Source: an archaeon BMS3Abin17 (GTDB lineage: Archaea > Nanobdellota > Nanobdellia > Pacearchaeales > GW2011-AR1). From it: a stretch of DNA of 48,275 nt. The stretch is taken from assembly GCA_002897655.1 (NCBI GenBank), contig BDTJ01000018.1, positions 1-48,275 on the forward strand, given 5' to 3'. Below, piece after piece: positions 1 through 48,275 of the stretch. Position 1 is the stretch's first letter. Each line of letters begins with the position of its first letter. Made by a program: the position numbers and the translations under genes. The notes below the pieces were generated by a model that was not told where the DNA came from, did no database searches, and was given only the letters and a program-made list of their open reading frames with translations.

Positions 1-156
1 TTTCTTTAAAATTATTACATAGGCTCTTTTACCTATGAACTTCTTTGGGGCATCTACTTTTGCACTATTACCAAATTGAGTAATAATCTTCTCGTAGAAA
101 ACTTCAACATTATCACTAAGTTTTATTTTTTTATTTAATACTTCTATCTTTCTCAT
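1..156 (-). CDS. Partial CDS (runs off left edge), DUF2080-like transposon-associated small protein
   Basis: Not in ORF track; reverse strand from ATG at 156 reads MRKIEVLNKKIKLSDNVEVFYEKIITQFGNSAKVDAPKKFIGKRAYVIILKK with no stop; GNSAKVDAPKKFIGKRAYVI resembles DUF2080. Confidence 0.65.
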   Translation of the reverse strand, partial: MRKIEVLNKKIKLSDNVEVFYEKIITQFGNSAKVDAPKKFIGKRAYVIILKK

Positions 157-302
157 GGATATCCTAAGATATCCTAATATTTAAAGCTTTCTGTCATTAG
201 ATTTATCACCCGTTAACTTTACAGAACCATGTTTAGCAAAGAACAAAAAGATTGGTGATTTATCCGAACGAAAGCGAGGACAGATTTCAATTTGGATGCA
301 AT

Positions 303-420
303 CTGGGAACATCGGAATTTAACGAAGTTTGATTTTCCCTCGACGAAGTCAGAGCTGGAAAATCAAATTTGGGTGGAGAAACCTGCAAGGTTTCGGAACC
401 GTTAAATTCCTGTTAGTTTC
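303..420 (+). repeat. attC-like recombination site 0
   Basis: AAC-A-TC-GGAATTTAACG ... CGTTAAATTCC-T-GTTAGTTTC: imperfect palindrome with unpaired TC, ending in GTT core. Confidence 0.7.
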
Positions 421-532
421 CCTCGATAGAGGTTGGATTTTAGTGCAACGTTCGGCGAAGCCGAAAAATCCAAAGTAAGCAAACGGGCGATAAATTTATA
501 TAATTTACATCATTACTAATTTTAATAGGGAT

Positions 533-760
533 ATGGGAAAAAAATTACATGATGACAAAATTGATGGTACTGTAGAAGAAATGGTTATTGGAAGTCCATC
601 AAGAACCAGAGGATTTGTTAAAGGAGATGCTGTTTATGAAATGGTTGTTGGAGGACCTAATAGGGTGATTGGTTATGTTAAAGATGGTGTAGCATATGAG
701 CCAGTTATGGGCGGACCTCCAAGAGTGATTGGGAAAGTTAAGTACCATCAAAGAGAATAA
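533..760 (+). CDS. Small internal-repeat protein, cargo of integron-like cassette 1
   Basis: Three ~20-aa repeats: VEEMVIGSPSRTRGFVKGDA / VYEMVVGGPNRVIGYVKDGV / AYEPVMGGPPRVIGKVKYHQ. Confidence 0.75.
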   Translation: MGKKLHDDKIDGTVEEMVIGSPSRTRGFVKGDAVYEMVVGGPNRVIGYVKDGVAYEPVMGGPPRVIGKVKYHQRE

Positions 761-780
761 TTCTAGCCCGTTCGCTTATT

Positions 781-884
781 GAAACTAACATCGCGATTAA
801 GAGAAGTTGAATTTTTGAGGCAACCCACAAAAATTCAATTTGGACGGAGCCTGCAAGGCGGAGTCTCTTAATCGCTGTTATACG
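781..884 (+). repeat. attC-like recombination site A
   Basis: GAAACTAAC-A-TC-GCGATTAAGAGA ... TCTCTTAATCGC-T-GTTATACG; R'' GAAACTAAC is the exact reverse complement of GTTAGTTTC at the start of the same cassette (412-420). Confidence 0.8.
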
Positions 885-985
885 TTTTTTCTGCAAGAAA
901 AAATCGCGGAGTGCAACGGAGCGACAGTATCCACGCAAGACAACTTTCAGTAAAATTATTAAAGAGAAAACAACTAGATAATCTT

Positions 986-1549
986 ATGAAACTATTAGTG
1001 GTAAATAATCATTCGAAGCATATCAAAGAATTATTGCATAAATTTAGAGAAGTTAAATCAATTGATTTTGAAAATTTGGAGAATAAAAACTATGATGGAT
1101 ATGATGCAATAATTCTTTCTGGCGGTTCTTCTCTTTCTGTGGCAAACTATGAAAAAGAGTATTCAAAAGAATTACATCTTATTAAAAATTGCCAAAAGCC
1201 AATTCTAGGAATTTGTTTAGGTTTTGAATTGATTAATTTTGCTTTTGGTGAAGAATTGAAGATGTTAAAACAGAAAGAGAAAGGGATAGTTTCAATAAGA
1301 TTGGTTTCTAAAGATGAACTATTTAAGTCCCTTCCAAAAGAATTTAATGTTTATGAAGCACATCGCTGGGTTGTTTCAAAAAATAAAAAATTAAATTCTT
1401 TAGCCAAATCAAAAGATGGAATTGAAGCTGTAAAACATCCCAAAAAGAAAATCTATGGTGTTCAATTTCATCCGGAAATTGTAATTAAAAAGGGACATGC
1501 TAAAAAAATCTTTAAAAACTTCCTAAATATAGGAAAGTTGTCTGAGTAA
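986..1549 (+). CDS. Class I glutamine amidotransferase (GATase1), cargo of cassette 2
   Basis: MKLLVVNNHSKH...; nucleophile elbow GICLGFE and GVQFHPEI; ATG at 986 preferred because the ORF-track start at 911 lies near the attC site. Confidence 0.8.
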   Translation: MKLLVVNNHSKHIKELLHKFREVKSIDFENLENKNYDGYDAIILSGGSSLSVANYEKEYSKELHLIKNCQKPILGICLGFELINFAFGEELKMLKQKEKGIVSIRLVSKDELFKSLPKEFNVYEAHRWVVSKNKKLNSLAKSKDGIEAVKHPKKKIYGVQFHPEIVIKKGHAKKIFKNFLNIGKLSE

Positions 1550-1554
1550 TATTG

Positions 1555-1690
1555 CGTATAACATCGCGATTAAGAGAAGTTCTTGAGCCCTCGAAAATTT
1601 TAATTCAAATAAAAGAAAAATTTTCAGAGCTGGCGAAAGAATTTGGGAAAATCTCGAGCCGAGAGATTTTCCTCTTAATCGCTGTTCGAC
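1555..1690 (+). repeat. attC-like recombination site B
   Basis: CGTATAAC-A-TC-GCGATTAAGAG ... CTCTTAATCGC-T-GTTCGAC; R'' CGTATAAC is the exact reverse complement of GTTATACG at the start of cassette 2 (877-884). Confidence 0.8.
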
Positions 1691-1815
1691 GACCTGAGCG
1701 AACAAAGAATATTGTAAGCGAAAGCGCAGCGGGGCACGAGTGGAGCAACTTCAAACATTGCGACCTCGTGAGTTGAAATTTGCCCACGACCGATTTCTTA
1801 GCGTAGTTGTGTCAA

Positions 1816-1935
1816 TTAAGGAGTTTTATTTAGAATAAACATTTTATCTATGTTTACTAACACAACAGCAATAATTGTTCCAATAAATAATAAAAGAACT
1901 ATTATTGCAAAAACTTTTTTCCAATTAATATTCAT
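1816..1935 (-). CDS. 39-aa single-pass membrane peptide
   Basis: MNINWKKVFAIIVLLLFIGTIIAVVLVNIDKMFILNKTP*; below the ORF-track length cutoff; hydrophobic helix. Confidence 0.5.
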   Translation of the reverse strand: MNINWKKVFAIIVLLLFIGTIIAVVLVNIDKMFILNKTP

Positions 1936-2120
1936 AAAAAATAGATAAAATCAAACTATTTATTCTTTTTGTATTGACACAATTTCATTTAATCAGCGTG
2001 TTATGCGATTTTTTAATTTAGCATTGGAGCGTTAAACGAAGCAAGGAATCATAAGGTCGTGGGTTTATCGACGGTGTTTTTGTTTTTACCGTCGACAAAT
2101 TCTCAATTTCGTTGAACATA

Positions 2121-2150
2121 ATCATATCATAAGTTTATTTATGATATGAT
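2121..2150. promoter_or_regulatory. dif-like / tyrosine-recombinase core-site candidate
   Basis: ATCATATCATAA-GTTTAT-TTATGATATGAT: perfect 12-bp arms around a 6-bp centre, 54 bp upstream of the recombinase gene. Confidence 0.5.
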
Positions 2151-2203
2151 ACTCCTAGAGAGTTTTATCATAAGTTTTTAAAGAATATTTTTTAAATTAT
2201 GGT

Positions 2204-3010
2204 ATGCCTGAAGGATTGCTAAATAAACTTAAAAGAGAACTTGAGATAGTTAATTCTTCTAAGAAAACAGTGAAAGCTTATTTATATTATACAAGGGAAT
2301 TCTTATTGCATTCAAAAGACAAGGGATTAAATGAAAATTCTGTCAAAGACTTTATTCAATCGCAAATAAAGAAAAAAAATCCCTCAACAGTATCTTCCCA
2401 GATTAGTGCTATTAAATTCTTTTTTAAAAGAGTCTTAAAGCAAAATTTGATATTAAATCATCCAAAAAGAAACAAAACACTCCCAACCATCCTAACAATT
2501 AGAGAAATAAAAAAATTAATTAAATCAACCAGCAACATAAAACACAAATTAATTATAAAACTGCTTTATGGGTGCGGTCTAAGGGTTAGTGAGATAGTTA
2601 ATTTGAAAAAGCAAGATATTAATTTTGAAGAAAGTTTAATTCATATTAAATTAGCAAAAGGGAAAAAAGACAGATTTGTGAAAATTCCTTCCTCAATGGA
2701 AAAAGAATTGAGTAATTACATAAAAATCATTGAATCAGATATTTTATTTCCTTCTTCAAGGGGTGGAAAATTAACAACTGCAACAGTACAGGCAATCCTA
2801 AAAAACTCCGCAAAAAAAGCAGGAATCAGAAAAAGAGTTTATCCCCACTTACTCCGCCACTCTTTTGCAACCCACTTGCTAGAACAAGGAACAGATTTAA
2901 GGATAATTCAAAAACTTCTTGGACATTCAGATATCAAAACAACGCAGATTTACACTCAAATCTCACAGGCATCAATTAAAAATATAAAAAGCCCTTTAGA
3001 TAATATATAA
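2204..3010 (+). CDS. xerA: Tyrosine recombinase/integrase, XerA-like
   Basis: LLYGCGLRVSEI, HLLRHSFATHLLEQG, LLGHSDIKTTQIYTQ catalytic motifs; 268 aa; SPLD tail. Confidence 0.85.
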   Translation: MPEGLLNKLKRELEIVNSSKKTVKAYLYYTREFLLHSKDKGLNENSVKDFIQSQIKKKNPSTVSSQISAIKFFFKRVLKQNLILNHPKRNKTLPTILTIREIKKLIKSTSNIKHKLIIKLLYGCGLRVSEIVNLKKQDINFEESLIHIKLAKGKKDRFVKIPSSMEKELSNYIKIIESDILFPSSRGGKLTTATVQAILKNSAKKAGIRKRVYPHLLRHSFATHLLEQGTDLRIIQKLLGHSDIKTTQIYTQISQASIKNIKSPLDNI

Positions 3011-3011
3011 A

Positions 3012-5528
3012 ATGCTACAAGGAAGAGGTTTATCAAATAAAGAAGCTAAAAAAAGACTTTCCAAATATGGTTTAAATGAAATAGAAAGAAGAAAAAAGAT
3101 AAATACTCTTAAAATTTTCATTTCTCAATTCAAATCCCCTTTAATTCTAATATTAATTGTAGCTGCCATAATCTCTTCAGTTGTTGGTTTACTGCCAGAT
3201 CAGGATTCAAATATTTTTGACACTATCTTGATTCTGATTATAGTTCTTGTTTCAGGAATTTCCGGATTTTTTCAGGACTATAAAGCAGAGAAAACTATAG
3301 AAGCTTTGCAAAAAATAGCAAGACCAAAAATAAAAGTCATAAGAGACAGAAGGGAAATAGAAGTCAGCATAAAAAATATAGTGCCGGGTGATTTAATTTT
3401 GCTTGAAGAAGGGGATATCATTCCAGCAGACTCAAAAATTATAGAAGTTTTTAGTCTTGAGGTTGATGAGTCTGTTTTGACAGGAGAATCCAGAGCAGTA
3501 AAAAAGAGTGTGTCTGATGAAATATTCAGAGGCACTTCAATAAACTCGGGAAATGCTCAGGCACTTGTTATTAAAACAGGAATGAATACAAAGATAGGTA
3601 AAATAGCATCAAAACTTCAGGCAATGAAAGAAGAAGAGACGCCATTTCAGACAGAGATTTCCAATTTTAGCAGAAAGATATTTTTTGTGATAATAGGGAT
3701 TATTCTTGTGCTTTTCTTTGCAAGTCTGTTTAAATACGGTCTTTACCAGTCAGTGCTTATTTCTATTTCTTTAGCTGTTGCCGCAATACCCGAAGGATTG
3801 CCTGCTGTTTTAGTTCTTGTTTTAGCTATCGGCGCAAGGGTAATGGCAAATAAAAATGCCCTGGTGAGAAAATTAAATGTTGTTGAGTCTGCTGGAAGTG
3901 TGGATATTATCTGCACAGATAAAACAGGAACCTTAACGAAAAATGAAATGTCTGTAACAAATTTATTTTTTAACAACAGGATATTTAATGTTTCAGATGA
4001 GCTTGATTCAGACAAAATAAAGCAACTGCTTATTTGTGGGGCATTGTGCAATAACTCAAAAATAGGGTATAAAGATGATGAAAAGATTTATCTTGGAGAC
4101 CAGACTGATATTGCCCTAAGGAAGCTTTCAGATAAACTATTAAAAGAAGAATTAAAAGGATATGAGAAAACAGCAGAAATTTCTTTTACTTCTGAGAGAA
4201 AAATGATGTCTGTTATTTATAAAAAAGAAGGAAAGAATTTTTTATTCTCTAAAGGAGCACCTGAAGTTTTAATTGAAAAGTGCAACAGGTTATATAAAAA
4301 CGGGAGAATTATAAAATTAGACAGAAAAACAAAAGAAATAATATTAAAACAAAATAAGGAATTTGCATCGCAGGCATTAAGAGTTTTGGGATTTGCATCT
4401 AAAGAAACAGATTCTGAAAACAAGGAGCAAGACCTTGTTTGGATTGGATTGCAAGCCATGATTGATCCTCCAAGACCAGAAGTTAAAAAAGCACTGGAAA
4501 ATTGCAAGACTGCCGGAATAAGGGTGATTATGCTTACAGGGGATAACCCTCTTACAGCCAAAGCTGTCGGAGAAGGTATCGGTCTTGAAAGCAGGAAAAT
4601 TATAAATGGCAGACAGCTTGATGAACTTGATGATTCAAAACTTGAAAAAGAATTAGAGTCAGGTGTTAATATCTTTGCAAGAATAACCCCTTTTCATAAA
4701 TTGCGGATTTTAACTATTTTAAAGAAAAATTACAGGGTTGCAATGACAGGCGACGGAGTCAACGATGCGCTTGCTCTGAAAAAAGCAGATGTGGGGATTT
4801 CCATGGGAATAAGAGGGACAGAAGTTGCCAAGCAGGCAAGCGATATAATTTTGCTCGACGATAATTTTTCAACAATAGTTCACGCAGTAAAAGAAGGGAG
4901 AAGGTCTTTTGATAATATAAGGAAATTTATAAATTACTTATTTGTGTGCAATCTTGCAGAAGTCGGAGTTTTATTTTTAGCTATCTTATTTTTAACATTA
5001 AAAGAGCCGATTTTACTGCCCATCCAGATATTGTGGATTAATCTGATTACAGACGGATTTCCTGCTCTTGCTTTAGGAATGGACCCTGCAAGACCCGGCA
5101 TTATGAAAAGACCCCCGAGAAAGAGAAAAGAGCCGATAATAAACAAAAGATTAGCCTGGTTAATAGGAACAATAGGCATTAAAAAACTTATTATATTATT
5201 TGCGACATTCTTTCTGGTGCTTCTTATTTCAGGGATAGAACAGGCAAGAACTGCTTTATTTACAGGATTTATTCTTTATGAATTTGTAAGGATTGGGAGC
5301 ATAAGATACCAGGAAAAGCTGAGTTGGTTTGCAAACAAATGGCTTCTTGCCGCGCTATTCGGGTCGGTGTTAGTCCAGATTCTGATAATTTACACCCCTC
5401 TTAACAGCATTTTTCACATTGTGCCTTTAAATGTTTCTTCATGGATAATTCTCTTAGTTGGAGTTATAATTGGATATATCTCTGCAATAGGAATAACAAA
5501 GATAGTTGTAAGGAAAATTAAAGATTGA
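3012..5528 (+). CDS. P-type cation-transporting ATPase (P2-type, Ca2+-like)
   Basis: DKTGTLTKNEM, VLTGES, MTGDGVNDALALKKADVGISMG, multiple TM segments. Confidence 0.93.
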   Translation: MLQGRGLSNKEAKKRLSKYGLNEIERRKKINTLKIFISQFKSPLILILIVAAIISSVVGLLPDQDSNIFDTILILIIVLVSGISGFFQDYKAEKTIEALQKIARPKIKVIRDRREIEVSIKNIVPGDLILLEEGDIIPADSKIIEVFSLEVDESVLTGESRAVKKSVSDEIFRGTSINSGNAQALVIKTGMNTKIGKIASKLQAMKEEETPFQTEISNFSRKIFFVIIGIILVLFFASLFKYGLYQSVLISISLAVAAIPEGLPAVLVLVLAIGARVMANKNALVRKLNVVESAGSVDIICTDKTGTLTKNEMSVTNLFFNNRIFNVSDELDSDKIKQLLICGALCNNSKIGYKDDEKIYLGDQTDIALRKLSDKLLKEELKGYEKTAEISFTSERKMMSVIYKKEGKNFLFSKGAPEVLIEKCNRLYKNGRIIKLDRKTKEIILKQNKEFASQALRVLGFASKETDSENKEQDLVWIGLQAMIDPPRPEVKKALENCKTAGIRVIMLTGDNPLTAKAVGEGIGLESRKIINGRQLDELDDSKLEKELESGVNIFARITPFHKLRILTILKKNYRVAMTGDGVNDALALKKADVGISMGIRGTEVAKQASDIILLDDNFSTIVHAVKEGRRSFDNIRKFINYLFVCNLAEVGVLFLAILFLTLKEPILLPIQILWINLITDGFPALALGMDPARPGIMKRPPRKRKEPIINKRLAWLIGTIGIKKLIILFATFFLVLLISGIEQARTALFTGFILYEFVRIGSIRYQEKLSWFANKWLLAALFGSVLVQILIIYTPLNSIFHIVPLNVSSWIILLVGVIIGYISAIGITKIVVRKIKD

Positions 5529-17013: not shown

Positions 17014-17959
17014 TGTGCGCCCCATAGACATATGTCGTAAGCTAGAATAGCTTACTAAAATCAAAATAAACCTCTGCAGGAGTCTTTTTACTCAAACTTG
17101 TATGGGGTCTAAAGTGATTATATCTCATTCTAAACTCATTGTGGCACTTACAAAACTTTAGCTCTCTGGCTAAAGTCTGAAAGAATCTCTCAATCTTTCC
17201 TGTTGTTGTAGGGCTATGAATTACTGTTCTAATATGTTTAATACCTCTCTTCCTGCACCATCTATCAAACTTACTATGCTTACTTCTAAGTCCAAATGCA
17301 CTTCCATTATCAGTTAATATCTCTCTTGGTTTTCCATGAACTCTAATGAGTTCATCTAAAATTTGTGTTACAACTTTAGTTGTAACTCTATTCAAATCAA
17401 TTAACCCAACACAATATCTTGAGCAATCATCAATAACTGCAAAACAATATTTATCCTTAATCTTTTGATCACTAACATCCATTTGCCAAAGTGAATTACA
17501 ATGTTTCCTCTGCCAGCGAATATATTTTAATCTTTTTCTTCTTCGAGGATTTGGATTTGTTAGCTTATGTTTATTTAAGATTTTGTTTATTGTTGTGTGC
17601 CCCAAATTAACAAAATCAGCTATTTTATCTTCTCCCCCTCCTGTTTGATTTCTAATTGAGATAATTTTATTTTCATTATCCAAAGTAATCTTTTTGTGAA
17701 TCTTTTTTGGTCTTTTTGATTTATCCCTTAAATCCCATTCGGTTTTCCTTAACCTTTCATCCCATCTTTGAAGAGTTCTTGACGTAATCTCCTAATTGAA
17801 TTTTGCCTTCAATATTTTTCTACATTGATTGTAAGAATGGTGTTTGATTCTCAACTTGAAAAACTCTTTTCTTATCTCTTCTTTCTTCATAAAATTAGTT
17901 CAATTTCATCTGCGAACTAATTTTCGGTTCCCTATCGACATATGTCAGTAGGCTACACA
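17014..17959 (-). mobile_element. IS element with rve/DDE transposase and imperfect TIRs
   Basis: Ends TGTGCGCCCCATAGACATATGTCG and (rc) TGTGTAGCCTACTGACATATGTCG. Confidence 0.75.
17042..17890 (-). pseudogene. IS481/rve-like DDE transposase with in-frame TAG at codon 33
   Basis: MKKEEIRKEFFKLRIKHHSYNQCRKILKAKFN*EITSRTLQRWDERLRKTEWDLRDKSKRPKKIHKKITLDNENK...; DDE motifs QMDVSD, TDNGSAFG, GKIERFF. Confidence 0.8.
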
Positions 17960-17996
17960 CGTGGTAAAAAACCCCAGATGTTCCAAGGAGTGCGAA

Positions 17997-18068
17997 CGCC
18001 CCAACCGGGAGTCGAACCCGGGTTGCATCCGCGACAGGGATGCGTCATAGCCGTTAGACCATTGAGGC
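17997..18068 (-). tRNA. tRNA-Asp (GTC)
   Basis: GCCTCAATGGTCTAACGGCTATGACGCATCCCTGTCGCGGATGCAACCCGGGTTCGACTCCCGGTTGGGGCG: acceptor GCCTCAA/TTGGGGC, anticodon loop CTGTCGC, T-arm CGGGTTCGACTCCCG. Confidence 0.93.
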
Positions 18069-18123
18069 ATACTTCATTCTATTAAAATCAGTTTTTAAAG
18101 GTTTTTATAAAGAAAAATAAAAA

Positions 18124-18381
18124 TTAAAGTAATCTATTATACAACCATACGAAAACATATCCACCAACAAACCCATCTATGAAGCCATATATTGCTCCTA
18201 AGATTGTTCCTGTCAATGTTGTGCTATATCCAAAATAAAACGCTGCAATCATACTTACAACTTCCTGTCCTGTTCCCACAGCAATTACCCACAACGAAAA
18301 AAATATCATTGATACAGCGCAGAGGATACCAATAGAAAGTCCTGCAGCTTTTGGATTTAAACCTTGTTTTGCCATATTCAC
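18124..18381 (-). CDS. Small membrane protein
   Basis: 85 aa, glycine-rich TM segments. Confidence 0.6.
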   Translation of the reverse strand: MNMAKQGLNPKAAGLSIGILCAVSMIFFSLWVIAVGTGQEVVSMIAAFYFGYSTTLTGTILGAIYGFIDGFVGGYVFVWLYNRLL

Positions 18382-18394
18382 CTCCTTTTATTTT

Positions 18395-18673
18395 TTATTT
18401 AAGATAATTAATGTAAACTATAACACCATCAACTATTAATCCTAAAACACCGATTATTAATAAAACTATTGTTATCCAGGCGTTGTCCGGAATGGATTTT
18501 TTTACACATAAAATTTTCTAATTTTTTAAAATTTACACAGGGAATTTTTAAACTCCGGACAACGCCGTTATCCACTTCCTTGGTTTTTTATTGGTTTTCA
18601 ACATCCATATAGCAAATATTATTATAAAAAGAAAAGCCATAGCACCAAATATATCAAAAAATTCTGCTCTCAT
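18395..18673 (-). pseudogene. 60-aa two-TM protein gene interrupted by an 88-bp MITE
   Basis: ATG overlaps serS TGA; removing the element plus one TSD copy gives MRAEFFDIFGAMAFLFIIIFAIWMLKTNKKPRKWITIVLLIIGVLGLIVDGVIVYINYLK*. Confidence 0.8.
18479..18566. mobile_element. 88-bp MITE: 13-bp perfect TIRs, 8-bp TSD
   Basis: GGCGTTGTCCGGA...TCCGGACAACGCC flanked by GTTATCCA (18471-18478 and 18567-18574). Confidence 0.9.
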
Positions 18674-19950
18674 TTTCTAACTTCTATCTTCTTCTTGCCC
18701 ATATATTTCTGCAGGGCCTTTGGAATATTTATGCTTCCGTCTTTTTGCTGGTTGTTCTCCATTATGGCAACCATTATCCGTGAAGTCGCGAGTGCAGTGT
18801 TGTTCAGGGTATGCAGAACTCTTCTATTTCCATGCTTGTCAACAACTCTTGTATTCAGGTTTCTTGCCTGATAATCTGTGCAGTTTGAAAGAGATATTAT
18901 CTCCCCATAAGCTTTTGTTGTTGGTCTGTATACATCTATATCAGCACTCCTGTATTTCCAGTCAGCTAAATCTCCTGAGCAAATTTCAAGAATTCTGTAA
19001 GGAAGTTCCAACTTTTTCAGGATTTCTTCAGAATTCTTAAGTAACTCATCATAAAGATTTTCAGAATCTTCTGGCTTGCAGAAAATAAACTGCTCAACCT
19101 TGTTAAACTGGTGTGTCCTCCATAAGCCTTTTTCATTTATCCCATGACTCCCAATTTCTTTTCTAAAGCACATTGAATAAGAAAAATACTTTTTGGGCAA
19201 TTCTGACTCCTTAAGCGTATCTCCTGAATGCATTGCCAATAGAGACTGCTCAGCTGTTCCAATTAAATTTAAATCCTCTCCTTTGATTGAATAAACAGAA
19301 TCCTCAATTGCTTTTTTGTCCATAGAAGCGTATATTGTTTTTTCATTCAGCATTAACGGAGGCTCAATATACTCATAACCCTTGCCCTTCATAAAATCAA
19401 CTGCAAATCTTATCAGTGCCTGATTAAGCAAAGCTAAATCTCCCTTAAGATAGTAAAATCCTTTTCCAGAAACTTTTGCAGAAGCATCAAAATCAACCAC
19501 ACCAAGTTTCTCTGCAAGTTCAACATGATTCTTGACTTTAAAACTAAACTTGGGTATCTTGCCTGATTTTTTAATCTCCTTATTATCCTTTTCATCTTTT
19601 CCAATTGGAACTTTTTTAGACATTATATTTGGAATCTGCAGCATTATTTCTGTAATTTGTTTTTGCAGATTGTCTGTTTTTGCGTGTATTTTCTCAATCT
19701 TCCCGGGAATCTCTTTGGCTTTTTTTATCTCTTTTTTTGCGTCTTTTTTTGCTTTTTTCAAATCATTAATTTTTTTAGAAATCTTGTTTCTTTCACTTCT
19801 TAAACCATCTTCCTGATATTTCAGCTTTCTCCATTCATCATCTAATTTCCTTACCTTATCAACTAATGCAAGTTTATTGTTTTGATTTTTCCTCTTTATA
19901 TTATCCTTAACCAGTTTTGGATTTTCCCTGATAAGCTTTATGTCAATCAT
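18670..19950 (-). CDS. serS: Seryl-tRNA synthetase
   Basis: GTAEQSLLAMHSGDTL, CFRKEIGSHG..GLWRTHQFNKVEQF, NCTDYQARNLNTRV, LNNTALATSR. Confidence 0.96.
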   Translation of the reverse strand: MIDIKLIRENPKLVKDNIKRKNQNNKLALVDKVRKLDDEWRKLKYQEDGLRSERNKISKKINDLKKAKKDAKKEIKKAKEIPGKIEKIHAKTDNLQKQITEIMLQIPNIMSKKVPIGKDEKDNKEIKKSGKIPKFSFKVKNHVELAEKLGVVDFDASAKVSGKGFYYLKGDLALLNQALIRFAVDFMKGKGYEYIEPPLMLNEKTIYASMDKKAIEDSVYSIKGEDLNLIGTAEQSLLAMHSGDTLKESELPKKYFSYSMCFRKEIGSHGINEKGLWRTHQFNKVEQFIFCKPEDSENLYDELLKNSEEILKKLELPYRILEICSGDLADWKYRSADIDVYRPTTKAYGEIISLSNCTDYQARNLNTRVVDKHGNRRVLHTLNNTALATSRIMVAIMENNQQKDGSINIPKALQKYMGKKKIEVRK

Positions 19951-20021
19951 ATCTTAAAGAAAGAAAAAGTATATTTAAAGCTTCTGAAAACCTTTAAAAA
20001 CAATAATCACTAAATTAATTT

Positions 20022-20726
20022 ATGGAAGGGGTGATTAATCAAACAGCCAGCACAGTAGTTGGCTATTATAATAATTTTATTGGGTTTTTACCTCCTTATG
20101 TTGGAGAGTTCTTTAATTTTCTTATACTTGTATTATTGGTTGTAGTCTATGCCGTCTTTATCTGGAAGTTTTACAAATTTGTCTCCAAAAAAAATATTAT
20201 TGGATTAAATCTAAATCAGTATAATCGATATGAGCATCCTTTGGGTGCAAAACTTATGGCAGGAGCATTTTACCTGATTGAATATATAATAATCTTACCT
20301 TTCTTGATTTTCTTTTGGTTTGCAGTCTTTACCCTCTTGTTAATAATCTTATCACAAGCCCAGGAAATCTCCCAGATACTTGTTGTTTCTGCAGTGATTA
20401 TTGCAGCAATAAGAATGACTGCTTATTATAAAGAAGGTCTATCGCAAGATATTGCAAAAATGCTTCCTTTAACTCTTCTAGCTGTTACTGTATTAAACCC
20501 TAATTTTTATAATGAATCACAATATTTTGAAAGAGTAATCAGCCACCTGGTTCAAATACCTGATTTCTTTATGCAGATAATAAGTTATCTTATATTCATC
20601 GTTTCATTGGAAATGGTTTTAAGATTTTTTGATTTTATTATCTCATTATTTGGGTTAGATGAGGAAGAGCAAATTGAAGAGATGAAAAAAAAGAGCAAAG
20701 TAATAGTTGATGAAGACGAAAAATAA
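20022..20726 (+). CDS. Multi-TM hypothetical protein
   Basis: 234 aa, about five TM segments. Confidence 0.6.
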   Translation: MEGVINQTASTVVGYYNNFIGFLPPYVGEFFNFLILVLLVVVYAVFIWKFYKFVSKKNIIGLNLNQYNRYEHPLGAKLMAGAFYLIEYIIILPFLIFFWFAVFTLLLIILSQAQEISQILVVSAVIIAAIRMTAYYKEGLSQDIAKMLPLTLLAVTVLNPNFYNESQYFERVISHLVQIPDFFMQIISYLIFIVSLEMVLRFFDFIISLFGLDEEEQIEEMKKKSKVIVDEDEK

Positions 20727-20727
20727 A

Positions 20728-22449
20728 TTAATTCTTTTCAACTTGGGGATGTTCTTGCCCCTTTTTCAGAATATTAAAAAGCATTTTCATGTGCTTCTGC
20801 TTTTCTTCTTGATATCCTTTTAGGCTTGTTTTCTCTTCTCTAATCATTTTTGCAACATACTCTCCTCCTAAAAAATGAGGTGTTAAAACATAGCTTGCAC
20901 CCTTTTTGTAGAGATTAAGGGCGTCTTTTATCTGATGAGCCCTTACAATAATGATTGCATCCTTGTTTACAACCCTTATTGTTTCTATCAAAAGGAAGTT
21001 TACATCAAAATCTGGAATTGTTGAAACAGCAAGCTGTATTTTATCCAAAGGCAAGGTCCTCAAGAGTTCCAAATCATCAAGATCCCCATAGATACAAGGG
21101 ATTTTAAACTTATTCAGATTAACTATTGTATCTGGATTATAATCCACAACAAGATAATTCTTCTTTATTTTTTTAAGAGAGTTCAGGATGCTGAATCCAA
21201 TTCTGTTGTAACCAAATAATATTGCATCGTATTGTTTTTTTATCCTCCTCCCTTTTTTTATGTTCTTTTTCTCAAAAAAAGAGATAAACCCAGACACTTT
21301 ATCATAAAAACTTCTTGAGAAGATTATCATATAAGTAGATAAAATTATTGTAAGCACCAGAGTTAAGGCAAGTGTAGAAACAACCTCTCCTGTTAAGTGC
21401 CCCATTGTAAAACCAAGAGCTAAAACAATCAAAGAAAACTCTGAAATCTGCGCAAGAGTTGTTCCGACAAGGAAATTACTCCTCTTTGTATAGCCAAACA
21501 TTGCCATTAATCCCATCAGAATTATTGGTTTTAAAATCAAGGCAATTAAAGAGAGAATTATTGCATTAAGAAAAATAGAGCTAATATTTAGTATTTGAAT
21601 ATTTAAACCCAAAATTATAAAGAAAATAATCAGAAAAAAATCCCTTAAAGGCCTTATCTTGGAACTTATTTCTGTGCTATAAGGGGATATAGACAAGACA
21701 ATTCCTGCAACTAATGCCCCAATCTCAATTGAGAATCCTAAAAAACTAAACAATGCAGCAATTACAAAACACCAGCATATAGAGAATAAAAACAATAATT
21801 CCTGAGATCTTGCAATAACAATCATTGCCCTGTGAATCACAAAATATCCTATAAAAAACAAGATTAATATTAATCCCAACCCTCCTAATAATCCCCTAAG
21901 GGCAAAAGAGCCCAAACTTGCTCCATGAGACATTGTGGATATAAACATCAAGACACCAATAGCAACCAAATCCTGTATAATCAAGATACCTATTGATATC
22001 TTGCCATAAAGAGAGTCAAGCTGTCTTTTATCTGACAATAATTTCATGACAATAATAGTACTGCTAAACATCAGAGCAATACCCACATAAGAAGAAACAA
22101 TAACACTAAACCCTAGGATATAAAGTGAGATTAAAAAAGTCAGGACAAATGTCAAACCCATCTGCGCCAAACCAATCAGAAGAGAAGAAGTTCCTATTTC
22201 CTTGATTACCCTTGGATTCATGTGCAGTCCAACAATAAAAAGCAGAAATGCTATTCCAAAATGAGAGAATAAGGTGATTATTTCCTGAGAGTCAGCGATA
22301 TCAAGATACCCCAAACTAAGAATACTTGCAATAATCATTCCGGCAATAATATATCCAATAATAACTGGCTGTTTAAAAGACCTGACTACAAATGAAGCTA
22401 CAAATGCTATAAACAAAATAATTGCAAGCTGAATAAATACTGTCTCCAT
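20728..22449 (-). CDS. KefB-type CPA2 antiporter with TrkA-N/RCK domain
   Basis: Antiporter TM region plus YDAILFGYNRIGFSILNSLKK...VVDYNPDTIVNL..IPCIYGDLDD. Confidence 0.9.
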   Translation of the reverse strand: METVFIQLAIILFIAFVASFVVRSFKQPVIIGYIIAGMIIASILSLGYLDIADSQEIITLFSHFGIAFLLFIVGLHMNPRVIKEIGTSSLLIGLAQMGLTFVLTFLISLYILGFSVIVSSYVGIALMFSSTIIVMKLLSDKRQLDSLYGKISIGILIIQDLVAIGVLMFISTMSHGASLGSFALRGLLGGLGLILILFFIGYFVIHRAMIVIARSQELLFLFSICWCFVIAALFSFLGFSIEIGALVAGIVLSISPYSTEISSKIRPLRDFFLIIFFIILGLNIQILNISSIFLNAIILSLIALILKPIILMGLMAMFGYTKRSNFLVGTTLAQISEFSLIVLALGFTMGHLTGEVVSTLALTLVLTIILSTYMIIFSRSFYDKVSGFISFFEKKNIKKGRRIKKQYDAILFGYNRIGFSILNSLKKIKKNYLVVDYNPDTIVNLNKFKIPCIYGDLDDLELLRTLPLDKIQLAVSTIPDFDVNFLLIETIRVVNKDAIIIVRAHQIKDALNLYKKGASYVLTPHFLGGEYVAKMIREEKTSLKGYQEEKQKHMKMLFNILKKGQEHPQVEKN

Positions 22450-22578
22450 TTTTCCTCTTTTATATAGTAAAATAAAGAGTCTTAGTATAAAAAACTTTTT
22501 ATTAATATTAAAGCTAATAGTTAATAGCTAAAAAAGAGCTATAACAACATTTTTAAACAAAATTTTGATAAGAATATC

Positions 22579-38192: not shown

Positions 38193-41100
38193 TTATTCTA
38201 ATCCATTCCCATTAGCATCATGGACCTTGACTAAATCTGTAACATAATCTCCTTGCTGAAGCTTAACAATCCTTACTCCCTGGGCAGCTCTTCCCATAAC
38301 CCTTATGTTTTTCAAAGAAGTTCTTATAACAATTCCCTTTGCAGTTGTTATTATTATGCTGTCATCATTATCTACTGTAACAGTTGTTACAACCCCTCCT
38401 GTTTTTTCAGTAACTTTTAAATTTATAACGCCCTTTCCCGCTCTTGCTGTTTTTCTATAGTCTTTAACAGCAGTTCTTTTTCCATATCCTTTCTTAGTAA
38501 TAGTCATAATTGCCTGTGTTGAAAGAATATCCATACTCACAACTTCATCATCTTTATTCAACTTTATTCCTGCAACTCCGTAACTTGCCCTTCCCATGCC
38601 CCTAACATCATCACTATTAAACCTAATTGCAATCCCTTTTTTAGTAGATAACGAAACCTCTTGTGATTTTTTGACAATCTCAACTCCAATTAAACTATCA
38701 GAATTATCAGAAGGAAGATTAATTGCTTTTACTCCAGAAGCTCTTGGCTTTGAAAAATGGCTTAGAGATATTTTCTTCACAATACCTTTTTTAGTTGCCA
38801 TGAACAAATCGTCTTCAAAATTCTTAACAGATATAACATTAGTAACACTCTCATCCTTTAAGCTAAGCAGGTTAATCATTGCTTTTCCCTTTCCATATCT
38901 CTCTGCTCTTGGAATTTCATAAGCTTTTAGCCACAAGACTCTTCCCCTTGTTGTAAAAAACATCAAATAATCATGTGTTGAACAGGTAATTAACTGCTTT
39001 ACAAAATCCCCTGTTGTTAATCCGCTTCCAATAACTCCCTTGCCACCTCTTTTCTGCTCTTTATAAGTCTGAATATCCATTCTCTTGCAATATCCCTTAT
39101 CAGTTATTGTAATCACAACCTCTCTTTTCTGAACAAGGTCTTTCTCAGATATTTCAGCGATTCTCTGTAACACTTGTGTTCTCCTGTTATCACCATACTT
39201 ATTTTTTAACTCATTAATTTCCCTGACAATTATCTTTAAAACTTCTTTAATATCTCCAAGAATTTTCTCAAGTTCAGCTATTTTTTCTTTCAAATCCTTA
39301 GATTCTTTCTTAAGCTTATCATGCTCCATAGAAGTTAATTGCTGAAGTTTTGTCTCTAAAACAGCCTGAGCCTGTTTTTTAGTTAATTTAAACTTTCTGG
39401 TTAATCCCTCCAGAGCTTCTGTTGTTGATTTTGATTTTTTGATTAAATCAATAACAGCATCAATATTTTTCAGAGCAATTAAAAGACCCTCAACAATTTC
39501 CTGCCTGTCTTTTGCTTTCTTAAGCTCATATTTTGTCCTGTTTGTAATAACTATCTTTCTGTACTTGACATACTCCTCCACCACATCCTTTAAATTAAGA
39601 ATTTTTGGCTGTCCCCCAACAAGCGCTAAAAAATTAACATTAAAACTATCCTGAAGACGAGTATATTTATATAACGAGTTAATCACAAATTTAGAATTAG
39701 TCCCTCTTTTCAGTTCAAGAACAATTCTTATCTTGCCTTTTGAAGATTCATCCCTTAAATCAGAGACATTCTTGATTCTTTTAGCCTGAATTAAATTAGC
39801 AATTTGCGTAATTAAGATTGATTTATTCAGCATATATGGAATTTCTGTAATAACAATAATTTCTCTGTTTCTTATTGTCTCTGTTGCTGTTTTCCCCCTC
39901 ATAATCAATCTTCCTCTTCCAGTTTTATACAATTCTTTCATGTCTCCCTGAACACTTCCTCCTGTAGGAAAATCAGGTCCCTTAACAATCTCAGCAAGTT
40001 GCTCAATTGTTATCTCTGGTTTTTTGATATAAGAGGTAATTGCATCGCAAACTTCTGTCAAATTATGTGGAGGGATATTGGTTGCCATTCCAACAGCAAT
40101 GCCAGTAGCACCATTAAGCATTAAAGCAGGGAGTTTTCCAGGAAGTAATTCTGGTTCTTTAAGAGAGTTATCAAAATTAGGAACAAACTTTACTGTTTCT
40201 TTATCAATATCCTGTAACAATTCAGAAGATATCTGCATTAGTTTTGCTTCTGTATATCTGTAGGCAGCTGCAGAGTCCCCATCAATTGAATTGTGAACAA
40301 AGATTCCAGAAGCCAAAGCAAAATTATGTGTTTTGTCTATAGTTAAATCATAAACATCAGCAAATTCCTTCAAAAACTCTATTCTAACAACTTTATGATT
40401 TCCATTTATTTCACACAACAACAAATTTACATCATTATTACAATATTTTTTAATTCCTAAATCCCAACCTGTGAAACTTTTTATTTCAAATATATCTCTT
40501 CTTATTCTTTCATAGTTTTCCTTATTTAAGATTATATTATTATCTCTCAAATATTGACATATTCTAAGAAATTTTTTCTTCCCAGTTAGATTAGTTTGTC
40601 TTTTTTTATTGCTTGCTACTATTTTTTCATGGAATAGTTGCTTATATTCTGGAATTCCCCATAATCTTTTCATAGTTATTGATGCGGTTTTTCTAAATTC
40701 TTCTATCCTTTCTGGATGTTCTTTTAAATATCTCTTATAGACCTCACTTAATGTAAGAATCATTTTTTCCCTATAATCCTTCTTCTTCCAATTTTTTAAA
40801 TTTCTTTCAGTCATTCTTTTTGAGTAAGCTTCTCTATTTTTCTTATCACTCCAATATTTTTCTCTTCCTTTAGATAACTTCTCCCTATATTCTGCATCAT
40901 TCTTATGTTTCATAGAAGTAAAATTATAGTGTGTTTTCCAATGTTCTTTCCAGTGCATTCTTCTTATATTATCTGGGTTATTATTCAATTTGTTAAAATT
41001 AATATGATGCCTTATCTTTCCTGCAGGCTTCTGATATATATTATTCCTTAAATTCCATTCATCTGAAAGAATATGCACAAAATTCCAAGAATCTGATTTT

Positions 41101-41834
41101 GGTTGAAAAATCATGGTATATCCAACAGCATTTGGGTCATCATCTTTTGCAGAAAGTCTAAAGTAAGTGGGCATCAATGAATCTCTTGACATTAAATCTT
41201 TAGCTTCTTTATAACTTCCATCCTTCAGCATAAATTTATGATTCAACGTACACTTTATTTCTTCACCATTATCCAAAATAACTTTCATAATCTCAGCATT
41301 TTCTTTTGTTTTTCTTGGATTTTTTACCTCAGAAATTCTTATTAAACCATCCTTATCAACAGTAAACGTAAAGTTTCTTTTTCCTTGTTTATGTTCTCTT
41401 ACTAATTCTATAAAAGATAAATCTCTGCCATCTACAAGTTTAACCTTAGTATCTGCTGTGAAACAGCCAAAATTACCTTGTCCAAAAACAAGAGGATATC
41501 TTAAAGAAAAATCCTGAGCCATCCTGACCATTGCATCATAAACTGCAGTATCGCCATGAGGATGATAATCACCAATAACCTTACCAACAACCTTTGCACT
41601 TTTTCTTGTAGAAGATCCTGGTTTAAGCCCCATTTGATTCATAGCATAGAGAATTCTTCTCTGAACAGGCTTTAACCCATCCTCAATAGCAGGAATTGCT
41701 CTTGAAACTATAACACTCATAGCATAATCCAGATATGCTTTCTTCATCTCTTCAGATACTTCTGTCTTAATTACTCCTTTTTCCTGCTCTTCCACATTAA
41801 CTTCATTTGGTTTTTCTTGTTTTTCGTCAGTCAT
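38193..41834 (-). CDS. gyrA: DNA gyrase subunit A (with intein)
   Basis: [27 protein letters not shown]...GQGNFG / [18 protein letters not shown]-terminal GyrA repeats. Confidence 0.97.
40290..41465 (-). mobile_element. 392-aa intein with HNH-type homing endonuclease in GyrA
   Basis: Cys1 [10 protein letters not shown]..., [29 protein letters not shown] (HNH), [24 protein letters not shown]. Confidence 0.95.

Positions 41835-46278: not shown

Positions 46279-48275
<1,997 letters not shown>

What the first reader, a model, noticed from the sequence alone, without database searches (positions are those of the whole stretch)
303..1690. Integron-like gene cassette array in an archaeal genome: three attC-like sites delimiting two complete cassettes
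Seen directly: three sites share AAC-A-TC-[stem]...[stem]-T-GTT. Site 0 has GGAATTTAACG/CGTTAAATTCC, sites A and B have GCGATTAAGAG(A)/(T)CTCTTAATCGC. The decisive detail is that the R'' arm ending each cassette is the exact reverse complement of the R' sequence starting the SAME cassette: cassette 1 starts GTTAGTTTC (412) and ends GAAACTAAC (781-789); cassette 2 starts GTTATACG (877) and ends CGTATAAC (1555-1562). That is expected if cassettes circularise and attC is rebuilt across the circle, as in integrons. Each cassette has one + strand ORF upstream of its site (75-aa repeat protein; GATase). The unpaired TC is analogous to attC extrahelical bases. Integrons have been reported in archaea, but this family of sites and cargo looks lineage-specific.
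Basis: partly seen in the sequence, partly recalled or inferred. Interest (0 to 1): 0.9.

Follow-up and report, generated by a model that had tools for sequence, protein, structure and literature searches.

The report
Integron-like gene-capture system in archaea
This stretch of an uncultured dwarf archaeon's genome holds swappable gene units lined up beside a DNA-cutting enzyme, working much like the bacterial integrons that gather resistance genes but built from a different enzyme type and different DNA landing sites; the same system turns up in about a third of the related archaeal genomes sampled.

Summary
Confirmed and larger than first seen. The three sites are real (308-414, 787-879, 1560-1686), and a second array of seven lies on another contig of the same genome. 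Each array ends at a palindromic attI-like site (window 2115-2150) followed by a tyrosine recombinase (2204-3010). A covariance model of the sites hits 115 of 371 genomes sampled across the phylum, where no canonical IntI passes its cut-off. Three comparative tests show site-specific exchange of units: the variable R hexamer matches between the two ends of one unit, L stems pair within one site, and in two congeners homology starts exactly at the AAC of attI while the units to its left differ. It is not a canonical integron: the recombinases lack the IntI-specific I2 insertion, a canonical attC model does not see the sites, cassette ORFs face both ways and show TATA-like boxes of their own. 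Best reading: a separate, widespread integron-like platform of DPANN archaea driven by Xer-type recombinases. Circles, strand use and activity are untested.

The parts
308..414 (+). attC-like site 1: AACATC, stem GGAATTTAACG/CGTTAAATTCC, branched loop, TGTT; 5' part of unit 1 (unit 308-786)
   Evidence: 93.4 bits with model R1
412..420 (+). R' of unit 1, GTT-AGTTTC; matches 781-789
533..760 (+). ORF of unit 1, 75 aa repeat protein; no Pfam or NCBIfam family and no homologue in 91 relatives; TATA-like box upstream
781..789 (+). R'' of unit 1, ATT-GAAACT-AAC; inferred exchange point at the AAC
787..879 (+). attC-like site 2; 5' part of unit 2 (unit 787-1559)
986..1549 (+). ORF of unit 2, class-I glutamine amidotransferase (GuaA-like) domain, 187 aa
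1551..1562 (+). R'' of unit 2, ATTGCGTATAAC, complementary to GTTATACG at 877-884
1560..1686 (+). attC-like site 3; 5' part of unit 3 (unit 1560-2114); loop and right flank nearly the same as site 7 of the C31 array
1816..1935 (-). possible 39-aa single-membrane-span ORF of unit 3 (read by eye)
   Evidence: direct reading
1983..2039 (+). second conserved hairpin TTCATTTAATCAGCG...GGAGCGTTAAACGAA inside the R'' end of unit 3; also in C31 and G028; function unknown
2106..2117 (+). R'' of unit 3, ATTTCGTTGAAC, abutting attI
2115..2150 (+). attI-like site: AAC-ATA-ATCATATCATAA-GTTTAT-TTATGATATGAT (12-bp arms, 6-bp spacer)
2204..3010 (+). tyrosine recombinase, XerA/IntI-like, without the IntI-specific I2 insertion; presumed integrase

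Best explanation
This is an integron-like gene-capture platform of DPANN archaea. A Xer-type tyrosine recombinase (2204-3010) acts at an adjacent palindromic attachment site (attI-like, 2115-2150) and at folded attC-like sites. Each mobile unit is AAC-hairpin-GTT-N6'-ORF-ATT-N6. Excision would join its ends into a circle in which N6 and N6' pair and lengthen the hairpin stem, and reinsertion would be at AAC of attI, next to the recombinase. Read on the minus strand this is canonical integron order (integrase, attI, cassettes that start with GTT and end in the folded site), but the ORFs lie in either direction and appear to have their own promoters. Shown here by comparison: site family, boundaries, attI as the junction, unit turnover, stem covariation. 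Inferred: that the adjacent recombinase is the enzyme, circular intermediates, use of one folded strand.
For: Same-unit R hexamer match of at least 5/6: 25 of 49 neighbouring pairs, against 15 of 235 other pairs (p=1e-12) and 9 of 77 within one site. L stem pairs within a site (mean score 8.26), not across a unit (5.53). L-stem covariation: 22 two-sided changes against 6.4 shuffled on an alignment not fitted to the structure, 152 against 45 on the model-fitted one. Hairpin loop follows the right flank (44 of 204 similar pairs) and not the left (4 of 204). G035 against G346, same genus: alignment starts at the AAC of attI; identity 74-87% to the right, 7-18% to the left. Two further groups of genomes break at the same point. 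attI-like motif: 16 of 21 close recombinase homologues, 8 of 14 array-linked genes against 1 of 15 XerA-clade genes, shuffles 1%. The XerA-type genes form one clade of 15 apart from the array-linked ones. TATA-like boxes peak at -40 to -21 of cassette ORFs, 34 of 51 hits. An 81%-identical cassette protein sits in arrays of two families with other neighbours.
Against: No circle, excision read or activity has been seen. 24 of 49 neighbouring pairs do not match well, partly because the model misses sites in relatives. Some sites have L'' and L' of different families (for example C31 20609), which simple exchange at AAC does not explain. The recombinases near arrays fall into several clades, so the enzyme-site link is by position and clade only. 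The attI palindrome was not found by the rule in 6 of 14 array-linked genes. MAG contigs often end at these repeats, and the window array is cut at its left end.
Confidence: 0.84

Rival explanations
1. Canonical integron (IntI plus attC) as already reported in archaea, merely divergent in sequence.
For: Same order of parts on the minus strand, GTT/AAC cores, same-unit R match, TTAAG/CTTAA in the L boxes much as in bacterial attC; TIGR02249 gives 206 bits.
Against: IntI-specific insertion absent in all 20 aligned recombinases, about 50 residues in bacterial IntI; 206 bits is below the 265 cut-off; 0 of 371 genomes of the phylum pass it; all nine IntI form one clade that excludes these; canonical attC model R2: one weak hit (E=0.38) in 212 kb of arrays, 13 hits in 88 kb around IntI; model R1: none in 163 kb around IntI.
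Confidence: 0.07
2. Xer/dif-type modules (as pdif modules): units flanked by double-strand dif-like sites and moved by Xer recombinases without folded DNA.
For: attI has the arm-6-arm shape of dif; the recombinase is of the Xer type; its core hexamer occurs in both orientations.
Against: Sites between units are 76-197 nt covarying hairpins, not 28-bp dif; the hexamers at the two ends of a unit are inverted, not direct, which double-strand excision would need; array-linked recombinases are outside the XerA clade.
Confidence: 0.06
3. Units are MITE-like or other non-autonomous transposons with terminal inverted repeats that happen to lie in tandem.
For: Inverted matches at the unit ends; nested inverted repeats inside some units.
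Against: Units are head to tail, share a boundary hairpin, carry different ORFs, and end at one site beside a recombinase in many genera; no transposase in the units.
Confidence: 0.02
4. The hairpins are RNA elements (terminators or regulatory RNAs) of ordinary genes; the end matches are by-products.
For: Covariation would also fit an RNA; both strands fold about equally well.
Against: The end match links two distant places across an ORF and not one hairpin; homology breaks exactly at AAC of attI; ORFs lie in both directions; no Rfam match.
Confidence: 0.01

Closest known systems
Integrons with IntI and attC/attI, including the archaeal integrons of Ghaly et al. 2022 (PMC9668308)
   Same: Tyrosine recombinase beside an attachment site; tandem gene units; imperfect-palindrome sites with AAC/GTT cores and R, L boxes; R boxes match within a unit; turnover at the integrase-proximal end; mostly unknown cargo with GNATs.
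   Different: Recombinase without the I2 insertion; sites not found by a canonical attC model, little or no unpaired central spacer (A/GAT instead of AA/GGC), branched loop, long extra stems; ORFs in both directions with own TATA-like boxes; in 31% of the phylum sample, against 75 of 6718 archaeal genomes for canonical integrons.
Archaeal XerA/dif (for example Pyrococcus abyssi XerA, PDB 4a8e)
   Same: Closest fold and sequence class: NF040815 246 bits, above its cut-off; no insertion.
   Different: Array-linked enzymes lie outside the XerA clade; the genome has a separate XerA (C38) with no array; a hairpin array beside the gene.
pdif/Xer modules of bacterial plasmids
   Same: Gene units moved by Xer-type enzymes (from general knowledge).
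   Different: There, short double-strand dif sites; here, long folded sites plus one attI.
Reverse integrons of Treponema and other spirochaetes
   Same: Unusual relation between integrase and cassette direction (general knowledge; mentioned in PMC9668308).
   Different: There, true IntI and attC; here, ORFs in either direction and another enzyme class.

Membership tests
Integron | Integrase is IntI with the additional I2 domain near patch III (IntegronFinder criterion) | tested here: not met
   TIGR02249 206 bits against cut-off 265
Integron | Sites recognised as attC by sequence-structure model | tested here: not met
   Own canonical model R2 built from 11 marine bacterial attC: no site found, controls found. 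IntegronFinder and HattCI models were not available
Integron | R'' and R' complementary within one cassette; L boxes paired within one site | tested here: met
Integron | attI beside the integrase gene, and cassettes joined to it at GTT/AAC | tested here: met
Integron | Cassette turnover (different contents at one attI) | tested here: met
   G035/G346; G082/G061/G060; four Pacearchaeota
Integron | Circular cassette intermediates; recombination of one folded strand | not testable with these tools
   No reads, no experiment
Integron | Unpaired central spacer and extrahelical bases on the R''-L'' arm | tested here: inconclusive
   Bulge of 2 nt (TC on the + strand) on the exchange-side arm only; no spacer of the usual kind
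Integron | Mostly promoterless cassettes in one direction | tested here: not met
   26 + and 32 - ORFs; TATA-like peak upstream
XerA/dif chromosome resolution | Recombinase in the housekeeping XerA clade, no adjacent array | tested here: not met
   Tree; C38 and 14 others make up that clade
pdif/Xer modules | Units bounded by short dif-like double-strand sites | tested here: not met
   Boundaries are long covarying hairpins; only attI is dif-shaped

The most novel reading that the evidence does not exclude
A second, I2-less kind of integron: Xer-type recombinases that handle folded single-stranded cassette sites without the helix held to have made integrons possible, either an independent invention or a relic of the state before IntI, serving as a main gene-exchange platform of DPANN archaea.
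Probability: 0.55. Interest if true: 0.92.

Novelty: new variant of a known kind. Interest (0 to 1): 0.83.

Why it matters
Integrase innovation is held to rest on the I2 helix, which docks the extrahelical bases of attC (PMC7790495). A widespread cassette system with folded sites and recombinases that lack I2 would make the origin of integrons directly testable. It would also give small-genome, mostly symbiotic archaea a general gene-capture device that standard integron software appears to miss: 115 of 371 sampled genomes here, against 75 of 6718 archaeal genomes found with canonical criteria (PMC9668308). Its cargo is nearly all of unknown function.

Tried and rejected
Rfam scan of 1-3000: nothing. 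Housekeeping XerA as the explanation: rejected by tree and context. Canonical IntI in the phylum: none over the cut-off. Viral contigs: only distant integrases, best 34% identity. The unit 1 protein has no homologue in relatives, so its movement could not be followed. Bacterial and Methanoperedens relatives of the recombinase: no attI and no sites, save one weak hit (E=0.07) in a Flavobacteriales locus. Structure prediction gave an ordinary Xer/IntI fold and did not discriminate further. Literature searches found no description of this system in the held library; subscription papers and preprints were not searchable. An earlier count gave 18 of 21 for the attI count; the recount is 16 of 21, used here.

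Full report
Setting. The window is the whole of contig C18 of a 1.09 Mb, 44-contig, 92% complete archaeal genome. The contig has archaeal genes (for example eIF2-gamma-like and IF2-like proteins, by eye), so the array is unlikely to be bacterial contamination.

Observation. The three sites and the four matching ends are as described. A search of the whole genome finds clustered sites only here and on contig C31, where seven sites (17116-22575) bound six more complete units. Both arrays end at AAC followed by a palindrome and then a tyrosine recombinase gene on the same strand (window 2204-3010; C31 23635-24459), although the two recombinases are only 44-46% identical.

The sites are one family across genera. 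A covariance model from 12 sites (R1) hits 35 of 92 relatives at E <= 0.001 and 115 of 371 genomes drawn across the phylum at E <= 1e-5 (the E-values are rough, but chance alone should give far fewer than one genome). Named hosts of the array-linked recombinase clade include records titled Pacearchaeota, Woesearchaeota, Aenigmatarchaeota and Nanohalarchaeota, with sites upstream of the gene in many. The L stem is supported by covariation, on the alignment of 12 and on 81 matches fitted to the model.

What a unit is. With 80 sites in 20-odd arrays, the six bases before AAC at the end of a unit are the reverse complement of the six after GTT at its start (at least 5/6 in 25 of 49 neighbouring pairs, 15 of 235 other pairs, 9 of 77 within one site). 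The L arms match within a site, not across a unit. So the break lies between L and the hexamer. Which side it lies on is settled in two ways. First, similarity of hairpin loops goes with similarity of the flank to the right of GTT and not with that to the left of AAC. Second, at attI the homology between genomes begins exactly at AAC: G035 and G346 (same genus) align from base 13492 of L148 and base 4354 of L349, the first A of AAC in each, with 74-87% identity to the right and 7-18% to the left. The end of the G035 unit that touches attI is found about 3 kb from attI in G346. G082/G061/G060 and four Pacearchaeota loci break at the same base. A unit is therefore AAC-hairpin-GTT...ATT-N6, and the hairpin travels with the ORF downstream of it. 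On the minus strand this is integron order.

The recombinase. It scores 246 bits with the archaeal XerA model (cut-off 220) and 206 with the integron integrase model (cut-off 265). Against bacterial IntI fetched here it lacks about 50 residues of the IntI-specific insertion region, as do all 20 aligned. In the tree, the genome's other recombinase (C38) and 14 further genes without arrays form one clade, and the array-linked genes lie outside it in several clades, of which the window's clade of 12 has 100/99 support; nine IntI form a separate clade. The attI-like motif stands upstream of 16 of 21 close homologues of the window gene and, by a stricter rule, of 8 of 14 array-linked genes against 1 of 15 XerA-clade genes, with 1% in shuffles. 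The link between enzyme and sites is thus by position and clade; no activity was tested.

Difference from canonical integrons. A model from 11 marine bacterial attC (R2) finds 13 sites in 88 kb around IntI genes in loci that gave it no training sites, but none of the archaeal sites in 212 kb, save one weak hit at E=0.38 on a divergent site of L150. R1 in turn finds nothing in 163 kb around 19 IntI-type genes. R2 comes from a narrow set of bacteria, so IntegronFinder's own model should be run. Geometry is nonetheless close: read on the minus strand, N6-AAC-A-L...L-GAT-GTT against RYYYAAC-AA-L...L-GGC-GTT, and bacterial and archaeal L boxes share TTAAG/CTTAA. Common descent of the sites is possible; convergence is not excluded.

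Cargo and expression. The largest ORFs lie in both directions (26 and 32). TATA-like boxes cluster at -40 to -21 from the start codon (34 of 51 hits in 48 ORFs), as expected of leaderless archaeal genes, so units seem to carry their own promoters. In this genome only a GATase and a GNAT have Pfam families. One cassette protein is 81% identical between G002 (same family) and G068 (another family) in arrays with different neighbours.

Verdict. It works like an integron (strong comparative evidence) but fails two defining tests of the integron family as now defined (IntI domain, canonical attC). I file it as a new variant: an integron-like platform with Xer-type, I2-less recombinases. Open: circles, strand use, whether both recombinase types act on one site pool, the origin of sites with unlike L arms, and the second hairpin inside some units.

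Noticed in passing
window 1983-2039; L010 about 1536-1617 and 3408-3475; L092 (minus strand) about 3066-3128: Second conserved hairpin (TTCGTTTAATCAGCG...GGAGCGTTAAACGAA) inside the R'' end of some units, with a further inner pair of matching ends (GTT-N6 / ATT-N6-AAT). It looks like a frame in which cargo is swapped: unit 3 of the window and the last C31 unit share the frame but not the ORF.
   Followed up: partly
L148 13497-13527 against L349 4360-4390: The core of the attI palindrome is inverted between two congeners (GTTTAT against ATAAAC); both orientations occur in other genomes.
   Followed up: no
L010 609-724, L157, L158: Some sites have L'' and L' arms of different families, as if recombined between L'' and L'.
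   Followed up: partly
window 38193-41834 (-) and 46279-48159 (-): Bacterial-type DNA gyrase genes in an archaeon; the GyrA reading frame seems to hold an intein (CFTADTKV...VHNS).
   Followed up: no
window 1-156 (-): DUF2080 transposon-associated protein at the contig end, left of site 1; the array is cut off there.
   Followed up: no
G000:C4 22821-23279 (-) (L087): A further, partial tyrosine recombinase at a contig end; possibly another array start.
   Followed up: no
L150 9091-9202 (-): The only archaeal site weakly seen by the canonical attC model (E=0.38), on the strand expected from the corrected polarity.
   Followed up: no
window 17042-17683 (-): Transposase-like gene with a DDE integrase-core look (by eye).
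   Followed up: no
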